Virus record (IMG/VR): IMGVR_UViG_3300025127_000046
Coordinates: 1 to 56,264 of that record
Length of the DNA: 56,264 bases
Source of the DNA: a virus
Strand: one strand, 5' to 3'
Shown: positions 33,977-38,864 of the stretch, piece by piece
Layout of the letters: every line of letters begins with the position of its first letter
How positions within the stretch are numbered: position 1 is the first letter of the stretch
Notes under the pieces: generated by a model
The model's input: only the letters and a program-made list of their open reading frames with translations
Database searches by the model: none
What the model was told of the DNA's origin: nothing
Translations under genes and position numbers: made by a program

Positions 33977-34005
33977 TTGACAAGTGTATAATTATGTGTT
34001 ATAAT
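33977..34005 (+). promoter_or_regulatory. Consensus sigma70 promoter before the resolvase gene
   Basis: TTGACA at 33977-33982 and TATAAT at 34000-34005 are separated by exactly 17 bases; both hexamers match the consensus fully. The -35 is embedded in ACTTGACAA, shared with the promoters at 35700 and 45282. The expected start, about 34011-34013, falls at or just before the ATG at 34014. Host RNA polymerase should read this, which suggests early expression. Confidence 0.8.
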
Positions 34006-34013
34006 ATAGTATT

Positions 34014-34535
34014 ATGAAAGAAGTTGTTTTAGGATTAGATATCAGTACTAGTAAAGTTGGTCTTTGTGTAATGGATTATAAATTCAATCTATTAGAGACC
34101 ACGCTGATCAAGTTAAATACAAAAGAAGCACTAGAAGACAGGTGCCTACACATAGAAGAGTTTATTAACAATCTTGATTATAACATCAAAGATGTTTATG
34201 TCGAGTCTGCTTTTATAGCATTTTCCGGTGGAAAGACATCAGCAGTCACAATGAGCAAGCTACAGAGATTCAACGGAATGGTTTGCTTTATGATTAGAAA
34301 GCTGCTTGGCTTTATGGCAGTTCCATTGTCACCTGCTAAAGCAAGAGGGCTCGTTCATCTAAAAATAAAGCGTGGAGAAAACACCAAGCTAAGAGTGATT
34401 GAGCATGTTGAGCGTGCATTCCCAAAAGACTTTAATTATGAACTAACAAGACATGGAAACCCTAAGCCCGGCACCGATGATCGAGCGGATGCAATTGTCA
34501 TTGCATGGGCTGGCTTAAATCAAAAAAAGACCTAA
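34014..34535 (+). CDS. RuvC-like Holliday-junction resolvase
   Basis: A 173-aa protein of the RuvC/RNase H-like fold. Visible acidic residues are D9 in VLGLDIST, E64 in YVESA and D156/D159 in PGTDDRADAIVIAW, matching the metal-binding set of the resolvase fold. Length and spacing fit RuvC. It would cut four-way junctions during replication or before packaging; T4 uses an unrelated enzyme, gp49, for that. The gene begins immediately after a perfect promoter with no Shine-Dalgarno, so the message is probably leaderless. It is the first gene of the DNA-metabolism block. Confidence 0.82.
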   Translation: MKEVVLGLDISTSKVGLCVMDYKFNLLETTLIKLNTKEALEDRCLHIEEFINNLDYNIKDVYVESAFIAFSGGKTSAVTMSKLQRFNGMVCFMIRKLLGFMAVPLSPAKARGLVHLKIKRGENTKLRVIEHVERAFPKDFNYELTRHGNPKPGTDDRADAIVIAWAGLNQKKT

Positions 34536-35699: not shown

Positions 35700-35727
35700 T
35701 TGACAAATTTTTCTAATAGGTTATATT
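35700..35727 (+). promoter_or_regulatory. Sigma70-type promoter before uvdE
   Basis: TTGACA at 35700-35705 and TATATT at 35722-35727, 16 bases apart, in the 57-base gap after the basic protein. The -35 context is ACTTGACAA as in the other two promoters. A GGAGG site follows at about 35740-35744 before ATG 35750. Confidence 0.7.
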
Positions 35728-35749: not shown

Positions 35750-36667
35750 ATGACAATAAACTTAGGATATGCATGTATCAACATGACATTACAAAAACAA
35801 AAGATCTGCTCTAATCGTGGCATGATCAAGCGCACTTTTAAATCTAAAGGTGTCGCATACGCATCAGAGCTAGCACTTATAAACGTGAAGGCTCTCAAAA
35901 AGATTATCGAGTGGAATAACACAAACGGCATCAAAGTCTATCGCATGACATCATGCCTGTTCCCTTGGTTCTCAGAATATGATATTTTTACTTTGCCAGA
36001 CATTGATGCTATTGCTGATATTTTGTCCGAAGCTGGTGAAATTGCAATGTCTGGCGGTCAACGTTTATCATTTCACCCCGGTCCCTTCAATTGTCTCGCA
36101 TCTCCAAGCGACGATGTGGTTCGCAAAACTATCGCAGAACTTGACGCACACTCGACGCAAATGGATCTTATGGGTTTGCCGGAATCTCCCCAAGCTAAAA
36201 TCAACATTCATGTCGGTGGTTCATATGGTGAACACGACAAAGCTCTTGCTAGATTCTGTAACAACTTTGCAAGACTGGCTCCAAACACACAAGCCAGACT
36301 CACTGTTGAGAACGATGATCGAGCCTCTCTGTATTCTACTAAAATGCTATACGACGGTGTGTTTTCTAAAGTTGGTGTTCCAATAGTTTTCGACTCACAT
36401 CATCATGAACTTGGTCCCCAAGATCTAGATTATCACGATGCGTTTTATCTTGCACGATCAACGTGGGACAAGATTGGTGTTAAGCAGATTTGTCATCATT
36501 CAAACTCTAAGAAAAAGTATGAGGACGAGTCAGTCAGAGCTAGTGCACATTCGGATTGGTACTATACGCCATTCGAAAACTACAAACAACCAGTCGATGT
36601 TGTGCTTGAGTGCAAGATGAAAGAGCAAGCGTTACTAAAATACAAAAAAGATTTTACATGCGTGTAG
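35750..36667 (+). CDS. uvdE: UV damage endonuclease UvdE
   Basis: A 305-aa TIM-barrel endonuclease of the UvdE family, near normal length. It opens with NLGYACINMTL, the family signature, and carries metal ligands in RLSFHPGPFNCL, KINIHVGGSYG, RLTVENDD, IVFDSHHHELGP, ICHHSNSKK and VVLECKMKE. UvdE nicks DNA directly 5' to pyrimidine dimers and some other lesions, an alternative to the T4 DenV glycosylase. I start at ATG 35750 because GGAGG lies six bases upstream; an ATA/ATT-type earlier start has no support. It has its own sigma70-type promoter and probably drives the array of small genes and the primase downstream. Confidence 0.93.
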   Translation: MTINLGYACINMTLQKQKICSNRGMIKRTFKSKGVAYASELALINVKALKKIIEWNNTNGIKVYRMTSCLFPWFSEYDIFTLPDIDAIADILSEAGEIAMSGGQRLSFHPGPFNCLASPSDDVVRKTIAELDAHSTQMDLMGLPESPQAKINIHVGGSYGEHDKALARFCNNFARLAPNTQARLTVENDDRASLYSTKMLYDGVFSKVGVPIVFDSHHHELGPQDLDYHDAFYLARSTWDKIGVKQICHHSNSKKKYEDESVRASAHSDWYYTPFENYKQPVDVVLECKMKEQALLKYKKDFTCV

Positions 36668-36837
36668 GCGATCTTGTTGTTTGGAAGCCTGACCTGCCCT
36701 TTCAATTCTCTAGAGATTATGGAATTGTCATTGAGGTTATTGATGGCTTTTTGGTCGGTGTTTTGTGGCTCGGCTCTACCGAAGTTTATTTAGAGCCAAT
36801 TAGGTATTTGGAGGTTATTTATGAAGAGGGCAATTAG
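36658..36837 (+). CDS. Small SH3-like protein, array member 1
   Basis: A 59-aa protein, MRVGDLVVWKPDLPFQFSRD with GIVIEV, VGVLWLGSTEV and a C-terminal LEVIYEEGN. The pattern VGDLV ... G-I-[VI] ... V-x-W ... LEV repeats in the following genes and suggests a small five-stranded SH3/KOW-like barrel. It starts inside the uvdE stop region. Its conserved LEV codons, TTGGAGGTT, double as the ribosome-binding site for the next gene. Function unknown. Confidence 0.72.
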   Translation: MRVGDLVVWKPDLPFQFSRDYGIVIEVIDGFLVGVLWLGSTEVYLEPIRYLEVIYEEGN

Positions 36838-37033
36838 TTCCATAAAGAAAGGTGCGCTTGTAAAAAAGAAGTACAATATTGACGAGGTTTTTGGCATCAC
36901 AACCTCAAATGTCGAATACCATAGTCCAATGAACAGCGGCACAGTTACCGCATATATTTGGGTTTTATGGGATGATGGTGACCACCACCTTTACAAAGTA
37001 GATATGTTGGAGGAAGTAAATGAAAGTAGGTGA
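36821..37033 (+). CDS. Small SH3-like protein, array member 2
   Basis: A 70-aa, somewhat diverged member: IKKGALVKKKYNIDEVFGIT, then SGTVTAYIWVLWDDGD and DMLEEVNESR. The G-x-L-V, V-x-W and L-E-x-V positions are kept. It overlaps member 1 by 17 bases and member 3 by 14; the last 14 bases encode NESR-stop here and MKVGD in the next frame. Confidence 0.68.
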   Translation: MKRAISSIKKGALVKKKYNIDEVFGITTSNVEYHSPMNSGTVTAYIWVLWDDGDHHLYKVDMLEEVNESR

Positions 37034-37187
37034 TTTAGTAAGAGTAAAAAATACGCCGTGGGATGATTTAGGAATTATTTTAGAAATAAACGGCAATTTC
37101 AAGTGGGCAGAAGTGCATTGGGTAACTTCCGGGTACATCTATGCTTTTTTTGCTGAAGACTTGGAGGTAGTAAATGGAAGTGGGTGA
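37020..37187 (+). CDS. Small SH3-like protein, array member 3
   Basis: A 55-aa protein: MKVGDLVRVKNTPWDDLGII, followed by LEINGNFKWAEVHWVTSG and FFAEDLEVVNGSG. ATG 37020 is preceded by TTGGAGGA. All scaffold positions of the array are present. Overlaps of 14 bases on both sides share the repeated junction sequence. Confidence 0.7.
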   Translation: MKVGDLVRVKNTPWDDLGIILEINGNFKWAEVHWVTSGYIYAFFAEDLEVVNGSG

Positions 37188-37356
37188 TCTCGTTTGGCTC
37201 GATAGGAGACAATTTTATGAGCATGACGAGAACGTTGGTATTATTTTAGAAGTCTTACAGACTCCTGATGGCAAACTTCTTAAAGTTGCATGGGATAATA
37301 ATGAGGCTTCATGGTTTCACGAAGACGAATTGGAGGTAATAAGTGAAAATAGGTGA
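37174..37356 (+). CDS. Small SH3-like protein, array member 4
   Basis: A 60-aa protein: MEVGDLVWLDRRQFYEHDEN, then VGIILEVLQTPDGKLLKVAW and DELEVISENR. TTGGAGGT precedes the ATG and is formed by the LEV codons of member 3. It is the best fit to the array consensus, with V-x-W written as VAWDNNE. Confidence 0.72.
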   Translation: MEVGDLVWLDRRQFYEHDENVGIILEVLQTPDGKLLKVAWDNNEASWFHEDELEVISENR

Positions 37357-37519
37357 TTTGGTTAAACTTAAAACAGGAACTGAGATTTATGGCTTCATTG
37401 TTTGTATACAAGAAAATAAATGGATTGGTTCTCGATGCGCCGTTGTCTGGCTACAGGACGGATTCCCAAAGAAATGGTATGCATTAGTCGAACTGGAGGT
37501 GTTAAATGAAAGTAGGTGA
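37343..37519 (+). CDS. Small SH3-like protein, array member 5 (GTG start)
   Basis: A 58-aa protein read from GTG 37343: MKIGDLVKLKTGTEIYGFIV, then KWIGSRCAVVWLQDG and LVELEVLNESR. The GTG is accepted because TTGGAGGT lies seven bases upstream and the 14-base overlap with member 4 repeats the junction seen elsewhere in the array. Confidence 0.68.
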   Translation: MKIGDLVKLKTGTEIYGFIVCIQENKWIGSRCAVVWLQDGFPKKWYALVELEVLNESR

Positions 37520-37691
37520 TATAGTTTACATGAGCAAATCGATGCTCGAAATGGGATACCCAGAGATGGGAATAGTTGTGGGAATGAAAGGTAAACATTA
37601 TGTTGTTGGTTTTCCAAATGGATTGGTTCAACCATTTCATCCTAACTGGGTTAGGGCCATATCAATCGAAAGGAAGAATAATGGCAAATAA
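37506..37691 (+). CDS. Small SH3-like protein, array member 6
   Basis: A 61-aa protein: MKVGDIVYMSKSMLEMGYPE, then MGIVVGMKGKHYVVGF and WVRAISIERKNNGK. VGDIV and GIVV are kept; the terminal LEV is replaced by VRAIS. It overlaps member 5 by 14 bases and member 7 by 11. Confidence 0.7.
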   Translation: MKVGDIVYMSKSMLEMGYPEMGIVVGMKGKHYVVGFPNGLVQPFHPNWVRAISIERKNNGK

Positions 37692-37926
37692 ATTTAAGGT
37701 AGGAGATCTTGTGAGGCATGTGCACTGGGATCTGTATGGAATAATTGTGCCAAGTGACAATTATTATAACTGGGTAAGAGTGATGTGGACTCGTGGAGAT
37801 TTGGAAAAGCCACCCCAAGGAATTACTTGGATGATGAAGGAGGAACGAGTTGGTTGGAATTCAACACAATTCCCCGTTTGTAAAGTGGCGAAGCATTGGA
37901 TCAAATTAGTACAAAAGGAGGAATAA
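37681..37926 (+). CDS. Small SH3-like protein, array member 7
   Basis: An 81-aa protein with the longest loops: MANKFKVGDLVRHVHWDLYG, then IIVPSDNYYNWVRVMWTRG, an insertion with KPPQGITWMMKEERVGW, and KHWIKLVQKEE. I use ATG 37681 after AAGGAAG; a longer frame open from 37600 overlaps member 6 and lacks a ribosome-binding site. The stop overlaps the primase start (TAATG). Confidence 0.72.
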   Translation: MANKFKVGDLVRHVHWDLYGIIVPSDNYYNWVRVMWTRGDLEKPPQGITWMMKEERVGWNSTQFPVCKVAKHWIKLVQKEE

Positions 37927-38864
37927 TGGAAGAAAAAGTTAAAATTTTATCGGAGATCTTGGGAAGACCCAACACTCCATCGGGCGGTGAGTTGTACTAC
38001 CATTGTCCTTATTGTAATCATCACAAGAAGAAGTTGGCAGTCAATCTCAAGAAAGGTTGGCACTGCTGGGTCTGCGACAAACGAGGCAAGAATGCTTATC
38101 GCATTGTCCGTAAGTTTGGAACATACCAGCAAAGACAGAAGTGGCTTGAGTTGGAAGGTCGTCTCGACCTATCAGAATTTGATCAAATCTTTAATGAATT
38201 GAATAATCTTGAAGAAGTACAGACAATCTCACTACCAGATGAATTTATATCGCTCTGTAACAAACACCTGCCTCGCACATGCAGAAAACCTTTAGAATAC
38301 TTGGAGAGCAGAGGTATAGGCAAAGATAAGATACTGAGATGGAAAATAGGTTACTGTCCCGAAGGCCAATATGGAGGCAGAATAATCATACCTTCGTTCA
38401 ACAATAACGGAGACATTAATTATTTTATTGCAAGATCTTATGTTGGTCACTCATGGAGATACCTCAATCCCCCGGCTAAAAAGGACGTTATTTTCAACGA
38501 ATTGTTTGTAGACTGGGATGAGCCGATCACGTTAGTAGAAGGAGTTTTTGATGCTATAGCGGCTGGGGAAAATGCTATTCCTGTGCTTGGGTCCACCCTG
38601 CGAGACAAAACAAAATTATTTCAGGCGATAGCCCTGAATGACACGCCGGTTTACTTAGCTTTTGATCAAGACGCTGAAAAAAAGACTGGACAAATTATTA
38701 AGAACATGTTATACTATGATATAGAGTTATACAAGATAGATGTAAGTGGCTTTGAGGACATCGCTGAAATGCCACGAAGGGTTTTGGAAACTCGAAGGGA
38801 AATGGCGCAAGCCATTGACCATGATGATTATTTTTTAATTGACGAACTTAGGAGGATAATGTGA
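37926..38864 (+). CDS. DNA primase with zinc ribbon and TOPRIM domain (gp61-like)
   Basis: A 312-aa primase. The zinc ribbon is C27-PY-C30 and C47-WV-C50 (GWHCWVCDKRGK). The TOPRIM catalytic domain has E205 in LVEGVFDAIAAGE and the D247-Q-D249 pair in LAFDQDAEKKTG. It makes short RNA primers at the replication fork together with a replicative helicase, not present in the window. Length and architecture resemble T4 gp61 and related phage primases. ATG 37926 follows AAAGGAGG and overlaps the stop of the last array gene. The start codon of the next gene lies inside this gene's ATG-TGA end. Confidence 0.9.
   Translation: MEEKVKILSEILGRPNTPSGGELYYHCPYCNHHKKKLAVNLKKGWHCWVCDKRGKNAYRIVRKFGTYQQRQKWLELEGRLDLSEFDQIFNELNNLEEVQTISLPDEFISLCNKHLPRTCRKPLEYLESRGIGKDKILRWKIGYCPEGQYGGRIIIPSFNNNGDINYFIARSYVGHSWRYLNPPAKKDVIFNELFVDWDEPITLVEGVFDAIAAGENAIPVLGSTLRDKTKLFQAIALNDTPVYLAFDQDAEKKTGQIIKNMLYYDIELYKIDVSGFEDIAEMPRRVLETRREMAQAIDHDDYFLIDELRRIM

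What the first reader, a model, noticed from the sequence alone, without database searches (positions are those of the whole stretch)
36658..37926. Seven tandem small SH3-like genes with identical 14-base overlaps
Members at 36658, 36821, 37020, 37174, 37343, 37506 and 37681 share VGD[LI]V ... G-I-[VI] ... V-x-W ... LEV. At four junctions the overlap is exactly 14 bases with pattern [AG]TG[AG]AA[AG]T[AG]GGTGA, encoding M-K-V-G-D in the new frame and a short C-terminus plus TGA in the old. Unequal recombination between repeats would preserve such junctions. The gene family looks like a growing and diverging array.
Basis: seen in the sequence. Interest (0 to 1): 0.72.

Follow-up and report, generated by a model that had tools for sequence, protein, structure and literature searches.

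The report
Swappable array of tiny phage genes
A large uncultured T4-like virus carries a row of seven tiny genes, each making one small barrel-shaped (SH3-like) protein, and related viruses gain, lose and reorder these genes whole at short shared joints that hold the start of one gene and the end of the one before; the set probably works early in infection against the bacterial host.

Summary
In detail: seven small ORFs lie at the stated coordinates between a UvdE gene and a DNA primase gene. Four junctions overlap by exactly 14 nt; the other two overlap by 17 and 11. Two details are softer: unit 2 lacks VGD, and units 6-7 lack LEV.

Relatives with 82-95% identical primase have 2, 3, 4, 7 or 11 units at this spot; more distant ones have none. 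Orthologous units recur in other orders and at other loci. Ends of homology cluster at junctions: 99 of 109 lie within 35 nt of a unit start, against 52 expected. Some single-unit indels are bounded by junction repeats. One scan of viral contigs plus a profile gave 474 distinct units, and contigs of 180-290 kb hold up to 31 detectable copies.

The junction is a ~30-nt composite. The codons of "LEV" are the next gene's Shine-Dalgarno, and the GGTGA inside the next gene's VGD codons is the previous gene's stop. So "LEV" is partly an RNA signal.

AlphaFold gives a five-stranded SH3-like barrel (pLDDT 89). No Pfam or PHROG family fits well. My best guess for function is early host-takeover or counter-defence binding proteins; that is inferred, not shown.

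The parts
35700..35727 (+). sigma70-type promoter (TTGACA-16-TATATT) in front of UvdE and the array; probably drives the operon early
   Evidence: 11 of 12 matches; kept as TTGACA plus TATATT/TTATAT/TATTAT upstream of UvdE in L002, L003, L006 and L008; consensus match only, no transcript data
35750..36667 (+). UvdE-type UV endonuclease gene, upstream neighbour; its stop TAG lies inside the first codons of unit 1
   Evidence: Pfam UvdE E 8.7e-53, phrog_8420 E 2.7e-43; sequence
36658..36837 (+). unit 1 (59 aa), ortholog cluster [5]
36821..37033 (+). unit 2 (70 aa), cluster [19]; lacks VGD; absent from L003
37020..37187 (+). unit 3 (55 aa), cluster [3]
37174..37356 (+). unit 4 (60 aa), cluster [8]; predicted five-stranded SH3-like barrel
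37343..37519 (+). unit 5 (58 aa), GTG start; no close ortholog among the relatives fetched
37506..37691 (+). unit 6 (61 aa), cluster [18]
37681..37926 (+). unit 7 (81 aa), longer variant; five strands, moderate confidence
37009..37033 (+). composite junction 2/3: Shine-Dalgarno GGAGG, start, stop
37163..37187 (+). composite junction 3/4
37332..37356 (+). composite junction 4/5
37495..37519 (+). composite junction 5/6
37926..38864 (+). DNA primase gene, downstream neighbour (TAATG overlap with unit 7); anchor used to find relatives
   Evidence: phrog_47 E 9.7e-38

Best explanation
This is a modular array of single-domain SH3-like genes in a T4-superfamily myovirus. Shown here: each gene body is bounded by a ~30-nt composite junction. 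Reading along it, the last codons of gene n (L-E-V) contain GGAGG, the Shine-Dalgarno of gene n+1; then comes the ATG/GTG of gene n+1; then the GGTGA of its conserved V-G-D codons supplies the TGA that stops gene n. Across relatives whole genes are present, absent, replaced or reordered, and homology starts and stops at these junctions. Inferred: recombination inside a junction leaves both neighbouring genes intact and translatable, so the junction works as a joint where cassettes can be gained, lost and swapped without harm, and the ORFs are translated by coupled re-initiation. The array sits behind a conserved sigma70-type promoter with UvdE and primase, so it is probably expressed early. 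Inferred, least certain: the products are small binding proteins with different partners (net charge -12 to +12, variable loops), used for host takeover or counter-defence. The phage keeps a changing repertoire because hosts change.
For: Array size at one syntenic site: 7 (window; the same 1360 bp in L004), 7 with different members (L002, primase 94%), 4 (L003, 95%), 11 plus 3 at a second site (L005, 86%), 3 HMM-detected plus a probable fourth (L006, 86%), 2 plus 2 at a second site (L008, 85%), 3 (L009/L010, 82%), none in L011-L020 (64% or less). Changed order and place: L008 [8]=[19] against window [19]=[3]=[8]; L203 [28]=[30] against L005 [30]=[28]; cluster [5] is first in the primase-site array of the window but at the second site in L008. 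Breakpoints: 99 of 109 internal ends of inter-locus homology lie within 35 nt of a unit start; random placement gives 51.8, at most 71 in 2000 trials. Single-unit indels: unit 2 between window and L003 (193 nt); one unit of 193 nt start to start in L182, missing in L180, with a 30-nt shared junction. Junction: 40.7 bits of information, 75% pairwise identity against 28% in unit bodies; 153 of 211 unit-unit overlaps are 14 nt, and 22 of 33 in loci not chosen by junction. The Gly codon of VGD is GGT in 94% of units that an upstream ORF runs into, 61% of the others, and 29% of other Gly codons. LEV-like C-terminus in 85% of units followed by an overlapping unit, 44% of those not (p 9e-19). Start codons: where the first residue reads V, 124 of 131 codons are GTG. 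Fold: pLDDT 89, five strands; profile hits to Spt5 and NusG KOW and HERC2/MIB1 SH3-like domains. Early SH3-like phage proteins with a role against the host: T4 MotB (PMC7827196) and phi3T Nip, which binds the SpbK TIR domain (PMC11984713).
Against: Whole-gene gain and loss is usual in compact phage genomes, so unit-sized indels do not by themselves prove recombination at the joint. Many BLAST ends are non-independent, and homology will always run through a conserved junction. Most loci were found with a junction pattern, which inflates the 14-nt share, though the primase-anchored loci agree. No array change was caught between near-identical genomes. There are no expression, translation or phenotype data for these phages. 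The functional step rests on fold, position and diversity only.
Confidence: 0.6

Rival explanations
1. Ordinary gene mosaicism plus mechanical constraint. Units are gained and lost by illegitimate recombination anywhere, selection keeps only intact genes, and the constant overlap simply follows from the conserved first codons. The junction is a translation signal, not a recombination joint.
For: With M-K-V-G-D as first codons, only overlaps of 4 or 10 (one frame) and 14 (other frame) are expected, and these are the main values seen: 14 in 153, 4 in 22 and 10 in 7 of 211. Non-homologous genes (a GIY-YIG-like and a MazG-like protein) also show the 14-nt arrangement. Junction identity can be accounted for by SD, start and VGD codons.
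Against: Random pairs of junctions share 8-14 exact bases in a row (median and 90th percentile), which could serve phage recombination. Orthologous units are reordered and moved between sites, and indels carry 6-40 nt of shared junction sequence.
Confidence: 0.3
2. The proteins are one biochemical class of nucleic-acid binders (KOW-like, as in NusG or MotB), multiplied for dosage, acting on phage or host DNA or RNA near the replication genes.
For: Best profile hits are KOW domains of Spt5 and NusG and ribosomal uL24; Foldseek hits include ribosomal SH3-like proteins; neighbours are UvdE, primase and an SbcC-like protein.
Against: No basic character: mean net charge -1.2, range -12 to +12; unit 4 is -10. 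The best PDB fold matches are PetP and YorP. Strong divergence between units argues against simple dosage.
Confidence: 0.2
3. Selfish or nearly neutral accretion: the cassettes spread because the joint makes them easy to copy, with little benefit.
For: Very high copy number (up to 31 detectable per contig); rapid turnover.
Against: dN/dS mostly 0.04-0.29 and intact frames throughout.
Confidence: 0.08
4. The array is one polyprotein made by frameshifting at each junction.
For: All shifts are in the same direction, and a Shine-Dalgarno-like sequence can stimulate frameshifting (general knowledge).
Against: First codons are almost only ATG or GTG (291 and 124; GTG in 124 of 131 cases where the residue reads V), at normal Shine-Dalgarno spacing; frame relations differ between arrays (4-, 10- and 14-nt types).
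Confidence: 0.02

Closest known systems
PeSL mobile regulatory cassettes of T4-type phages (Arbiol 2010; Comeau 2014; known here only through citations in PMC4503421)
   Same: short repeated regulatory motif thought to mediate modular shuffling of early genes in T4-like phages
   Different: PeSLs are promoter plus stem-loop motifs between genes; these junctions are translational (SD, start, stop), lie inside overlapping ORFs, and join paralogous genes
Lineage-specific gene expansions in large phages, e.g. about 35 zinc-ribbon copies in Bacillus phage G (PMC7824862)
   Same: one small domain multiplied many times in one large phage genome
   Different: different fold; no junction-linked cassette array described there
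T4 MotB (PMC7827196)
   Same: early gene of a T4-like phage, KOW/SH3-like domain, host takeover
   Different: two domains (KOW plus OB), binds DNA; not an array of single domains
phi3T Nip (PMC11984713)
   Same: early phage protein with SH3-like domains that binds and inhibits a host defence protein
   Different: 279 aa with two SH3-like domains plus an HU-like domain; no sequence relation tested
YorP (2heq) of the Bacillus subtilis SP-beta prophage, and PetP (2n5u)
   Same: small SH3-like proteins, top Foldseek PDB matches
   Different: single genes; E 3e-3 to 1e-2 shows shared fold only
Small uncharacterised phage proteins in BFVD, e.g. A0A516MB52 (42% identity, TM 0.78)
   Same: same fold and size; probably members of the same family
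   Different: no array or junction is described for them in what I could read

Membership tests
SH3-like barrel superfamily (incl. KOW) | small five-stranded beta barrel | tested here: met
   AlphaFold unit 4: pLDDT 89, pTM 0.75, strands 6-9, 22-30, 33-39, 45-49, 53-55 with a short helix at 50-52; unit 7 weaker, pLDDT 72
SH3-like barrel superfamily (incl. KOW) | sequence relation to known members | tested here: met
   profile of 82 units against PDB: Spt5 5.6e-6, NusG 2.4e-5, HERC2 2.7e-4
KOW proteins (NusG/Spt5/MotB-like) | nucleic-acid binding | not testable with these tools
   no binding data; net charge is not basic
Any curated Pfam or PHROG family | score above the family cut-off (Pfam) or strong match (PHROGs) | tested here: not met
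   window units and 82 aligned units: only scattered weak hits, and no window unit reaches a Pfam cut-off
PeSL cassettes | intergenic early promoter plus stem-loop terminator at each joint | tested here: not met
   junctions lie inside overlapping ORFs; the scan shows no + strand promoter or terminator at the four 14-nt junctions
T4 MotB | N-terminal KOW plus C-terminal OB-fold | tested here: not met
   units are one domain, median 61 aa
Integron-type gene cassettes | integrase and attC sites | not tested
   no integrase was searched for; the joint is explained by translation signals
T4-superfamily myoviruses (the carrier) | T4-type terminase, portal and protease | tested here: met
   TerL phrog_2 1.6e-51, portal phrog_213 1.1e-71, protease phrog_207 5.9e-62; TerL 47% to Flavobacterium immuto phages

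The most novel reading that the evidence does not exclude
A self-preserving gene-cassette system without an integrase. A ~30-nt coding junction that is at once ribosome-binding site, start, stop and recombination joint lets large phages assemble and reshuffle repertoires of tens of SH3-like effector genes, comparable in logic to an integron or a variable effector locus.
Probability: 0.3. Interest if true: 0.85.

Novelty: new variant of a known kind. Interest (0 to 1): 0.62.

Why it matters
Phage genomes are full of tiny early genes of unknown function. Here hundreds of them fall into one fold family with one rule of assembly, so an unannotated mass of genes becomes one testable question: what do these SH3-like proteins bind, and does the joint promote exchange? 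If they are counter-defence or takeover proteins, the joint gives a simple DNA pattern for finding more. The case also shows how one short sequence can carry protein, ribosome-binding and stop information at once and so keep a gene array intact while its members change.

Tried and rejected
DNA search of the array against 50,697 phage records: only chance-level hits. tblastn of single units: nothing significant. The Aeromonas phage 65 hit is a single ORF, not an array. Reference relatives Mel-JY01, immuto and S-WAM2 have no profile match; LR756508 has one. The single genome-contig match to the junction pattern is probably chance. Promoter or terminator at each 14-nt junction: rejected. Uniform DNA-binding character: not supported by charge. 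The 215-nt indel between the 99.7% identical contigs L176 and L193 is not a unit but a short ORF plus a tRNA-like stretch, so it is not evidence for array change. Literature searches found no description of such arrays, but the library holds open-licence papers only; the two PeSL papers were not held. Two family searches failed on wrong coordinates and one script on a missing file.

Full report
Observation. The window is a 56-kb virus record. TerL, portal and protease mark it as a T4-superfamily myovirus, with a TerL only 47% identical to its nearest phage record, Flavobacterium immuto. Seven ORFs of 55-81 aa lie at the stated places between UvdE and DNA primase. Four overlaps are exactly 14 nt; the others are 17 and 11. 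The extended junction is far beyond chance.

Relatives. Primase-anchored viral contigs show the same site with very different contents: 7 units in the window and L004 (the same virus, 1360 of 1360 bases identical over the array), 7 partly different in L002, 4 in L003, 11 in L005, 3 HMM-detected plus a probable fourth (MLKKYMGNCSFKRGDLV) in L006, 2 in L008, 3 in L009/L010, and none in ten more distant contigs. The primase itself is 82-95% identical across the close group. Units diverge much faster (47-82% identity, against 79-95% for UvdE and primase in the pairs measured) but remain under purifying selection.

Family. A scan of viral contigs with the junction pattern gave 73 stretches. A profile built from the units then found 510 units, 474 distinct. 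Whole contigs of 180-290 kb hold up to 31 detectable copies, often in further arrays, as in L236, L237 and L238. Many more ORFs sit in 14-nt slots but fall below the profile threshold. The same pattern in 257 Gb of prokaryote contigs gives one match, with no unit in that genome.

Junction anatomy. Consensus: ntTgGAGgTgaTnA-aTGaAagTnGGTGAttTnGT. In the upstream frame it reads L-E-V-I-[NS]-E-[SN]-R-stop; in the downstream frame M-K-V-G-D-L-V. Because of those first codons an upstream ORF is expected to stop after 14 nt in one frame, or 4 or 10 nt in the other. The observed values are mainly those: 14 in 153, 4 in 22 and 10 in 7 of 211. Loci not chosen by junction agree: 22 of 33 are 14 nt. The stop constrains a synonymous site: GGT in 94% of units with an upstream ORF running in, 61% otherwise, 29% elsewhere. 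LEV-like ends occur in 85% of units followed by an overlapping unit and 44% of those that are not. First codons are ATG or GTG, which speaks against a frameshifted polyprotein.

Shuffling. Ortholog clusters appear in different orders and at different sites. Homology between loci ends near unit starts in 99 of 109 cases against 51.8 expected. Clean single-unit indels exist: unit 2 (window against L003), and a 193-nt unit in L182 missing in L180 with 30 nt of shared junction. Recent duplicates within a locus are few: 11 pairs at 45% or more, best 87%. So whole-gene modularity with breakpoints at junctions is shown. That the junction actively promotes recombination is inferred, and the ordinary-mosaicism rival stays open.

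Expression. A sigma70-type promoter, 11 of 12 matches, ends 22 nt before the UvdE start and is kept in four relatives. No + strand promoter or terminator is seen at the four 14-nt junctions. Early expression of a coupled operon is inferred.

Fold and function. Unit 4 folds with good confidence into a five-stranded SH3-like barrel; unit 7 is similar with less confidence. The profile reaches Spt5 and NusG KOW and HERC2/MIB1 domains. Foldseek reaches PetP, YorP and many small phage proteins. No Pfam or PHROG family covers the units well. Net charge varies from -12 to +12, which fits different partners better than one nucleic-acid ligand. Two early phage proteins with SH3-like domains act on the host: MotB (PMC7827196) and Nip (PMC11984713). 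From this I infer host takeover or counter-defence; that step alone I would put at about 0.4.

Verdict. It is a new variant of phage modular shuffling and of domain expansion, on a large scale and not described in anything I could search.

Noticed in passing
L238:11299-12780: UvdE lies inside an array, flanked by two closely similar 78-79 aa units; UvdE itself may move as a cassette. In the window UvdE directly precedes the array.
   Followed up: no
L236, L237, L238: Several CxxC...GHN...C zinc-knuckle proteins (about 260-300 aa, up to three per region) are interspersed with the SH3-like arrays: another expanded family.
   Followed up: no
L176 oriented 2162-2378 vs L193: Two contigs 99.7% identical over 7 kb differ by a 215-nt insert with a 38-aa ORF and a tRNA-like stretch.
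   Followed up: partly
window 33977-34005: Perfect extended sigma70 consensus (12 of 12, TG before the -10) just before the RuvC-like gene at 34014; a TATAAT also stands there in several relatives.
   Followed up: no
L206, L208, L179 (14-nt slots): Genes that look like a GIY-YIG nuclease, a MazG-like protein and a SWIM-type zinc finger sit in array slots with the same 14-nt junction and an ESR tail; the assignments are by eye.
   Followed up: partly
L003:5039-5239 and L006:8840-9040: A different small, apparently helical gene (66 aa) takes the last slot before primase in these two relatives.
   Followed up: no
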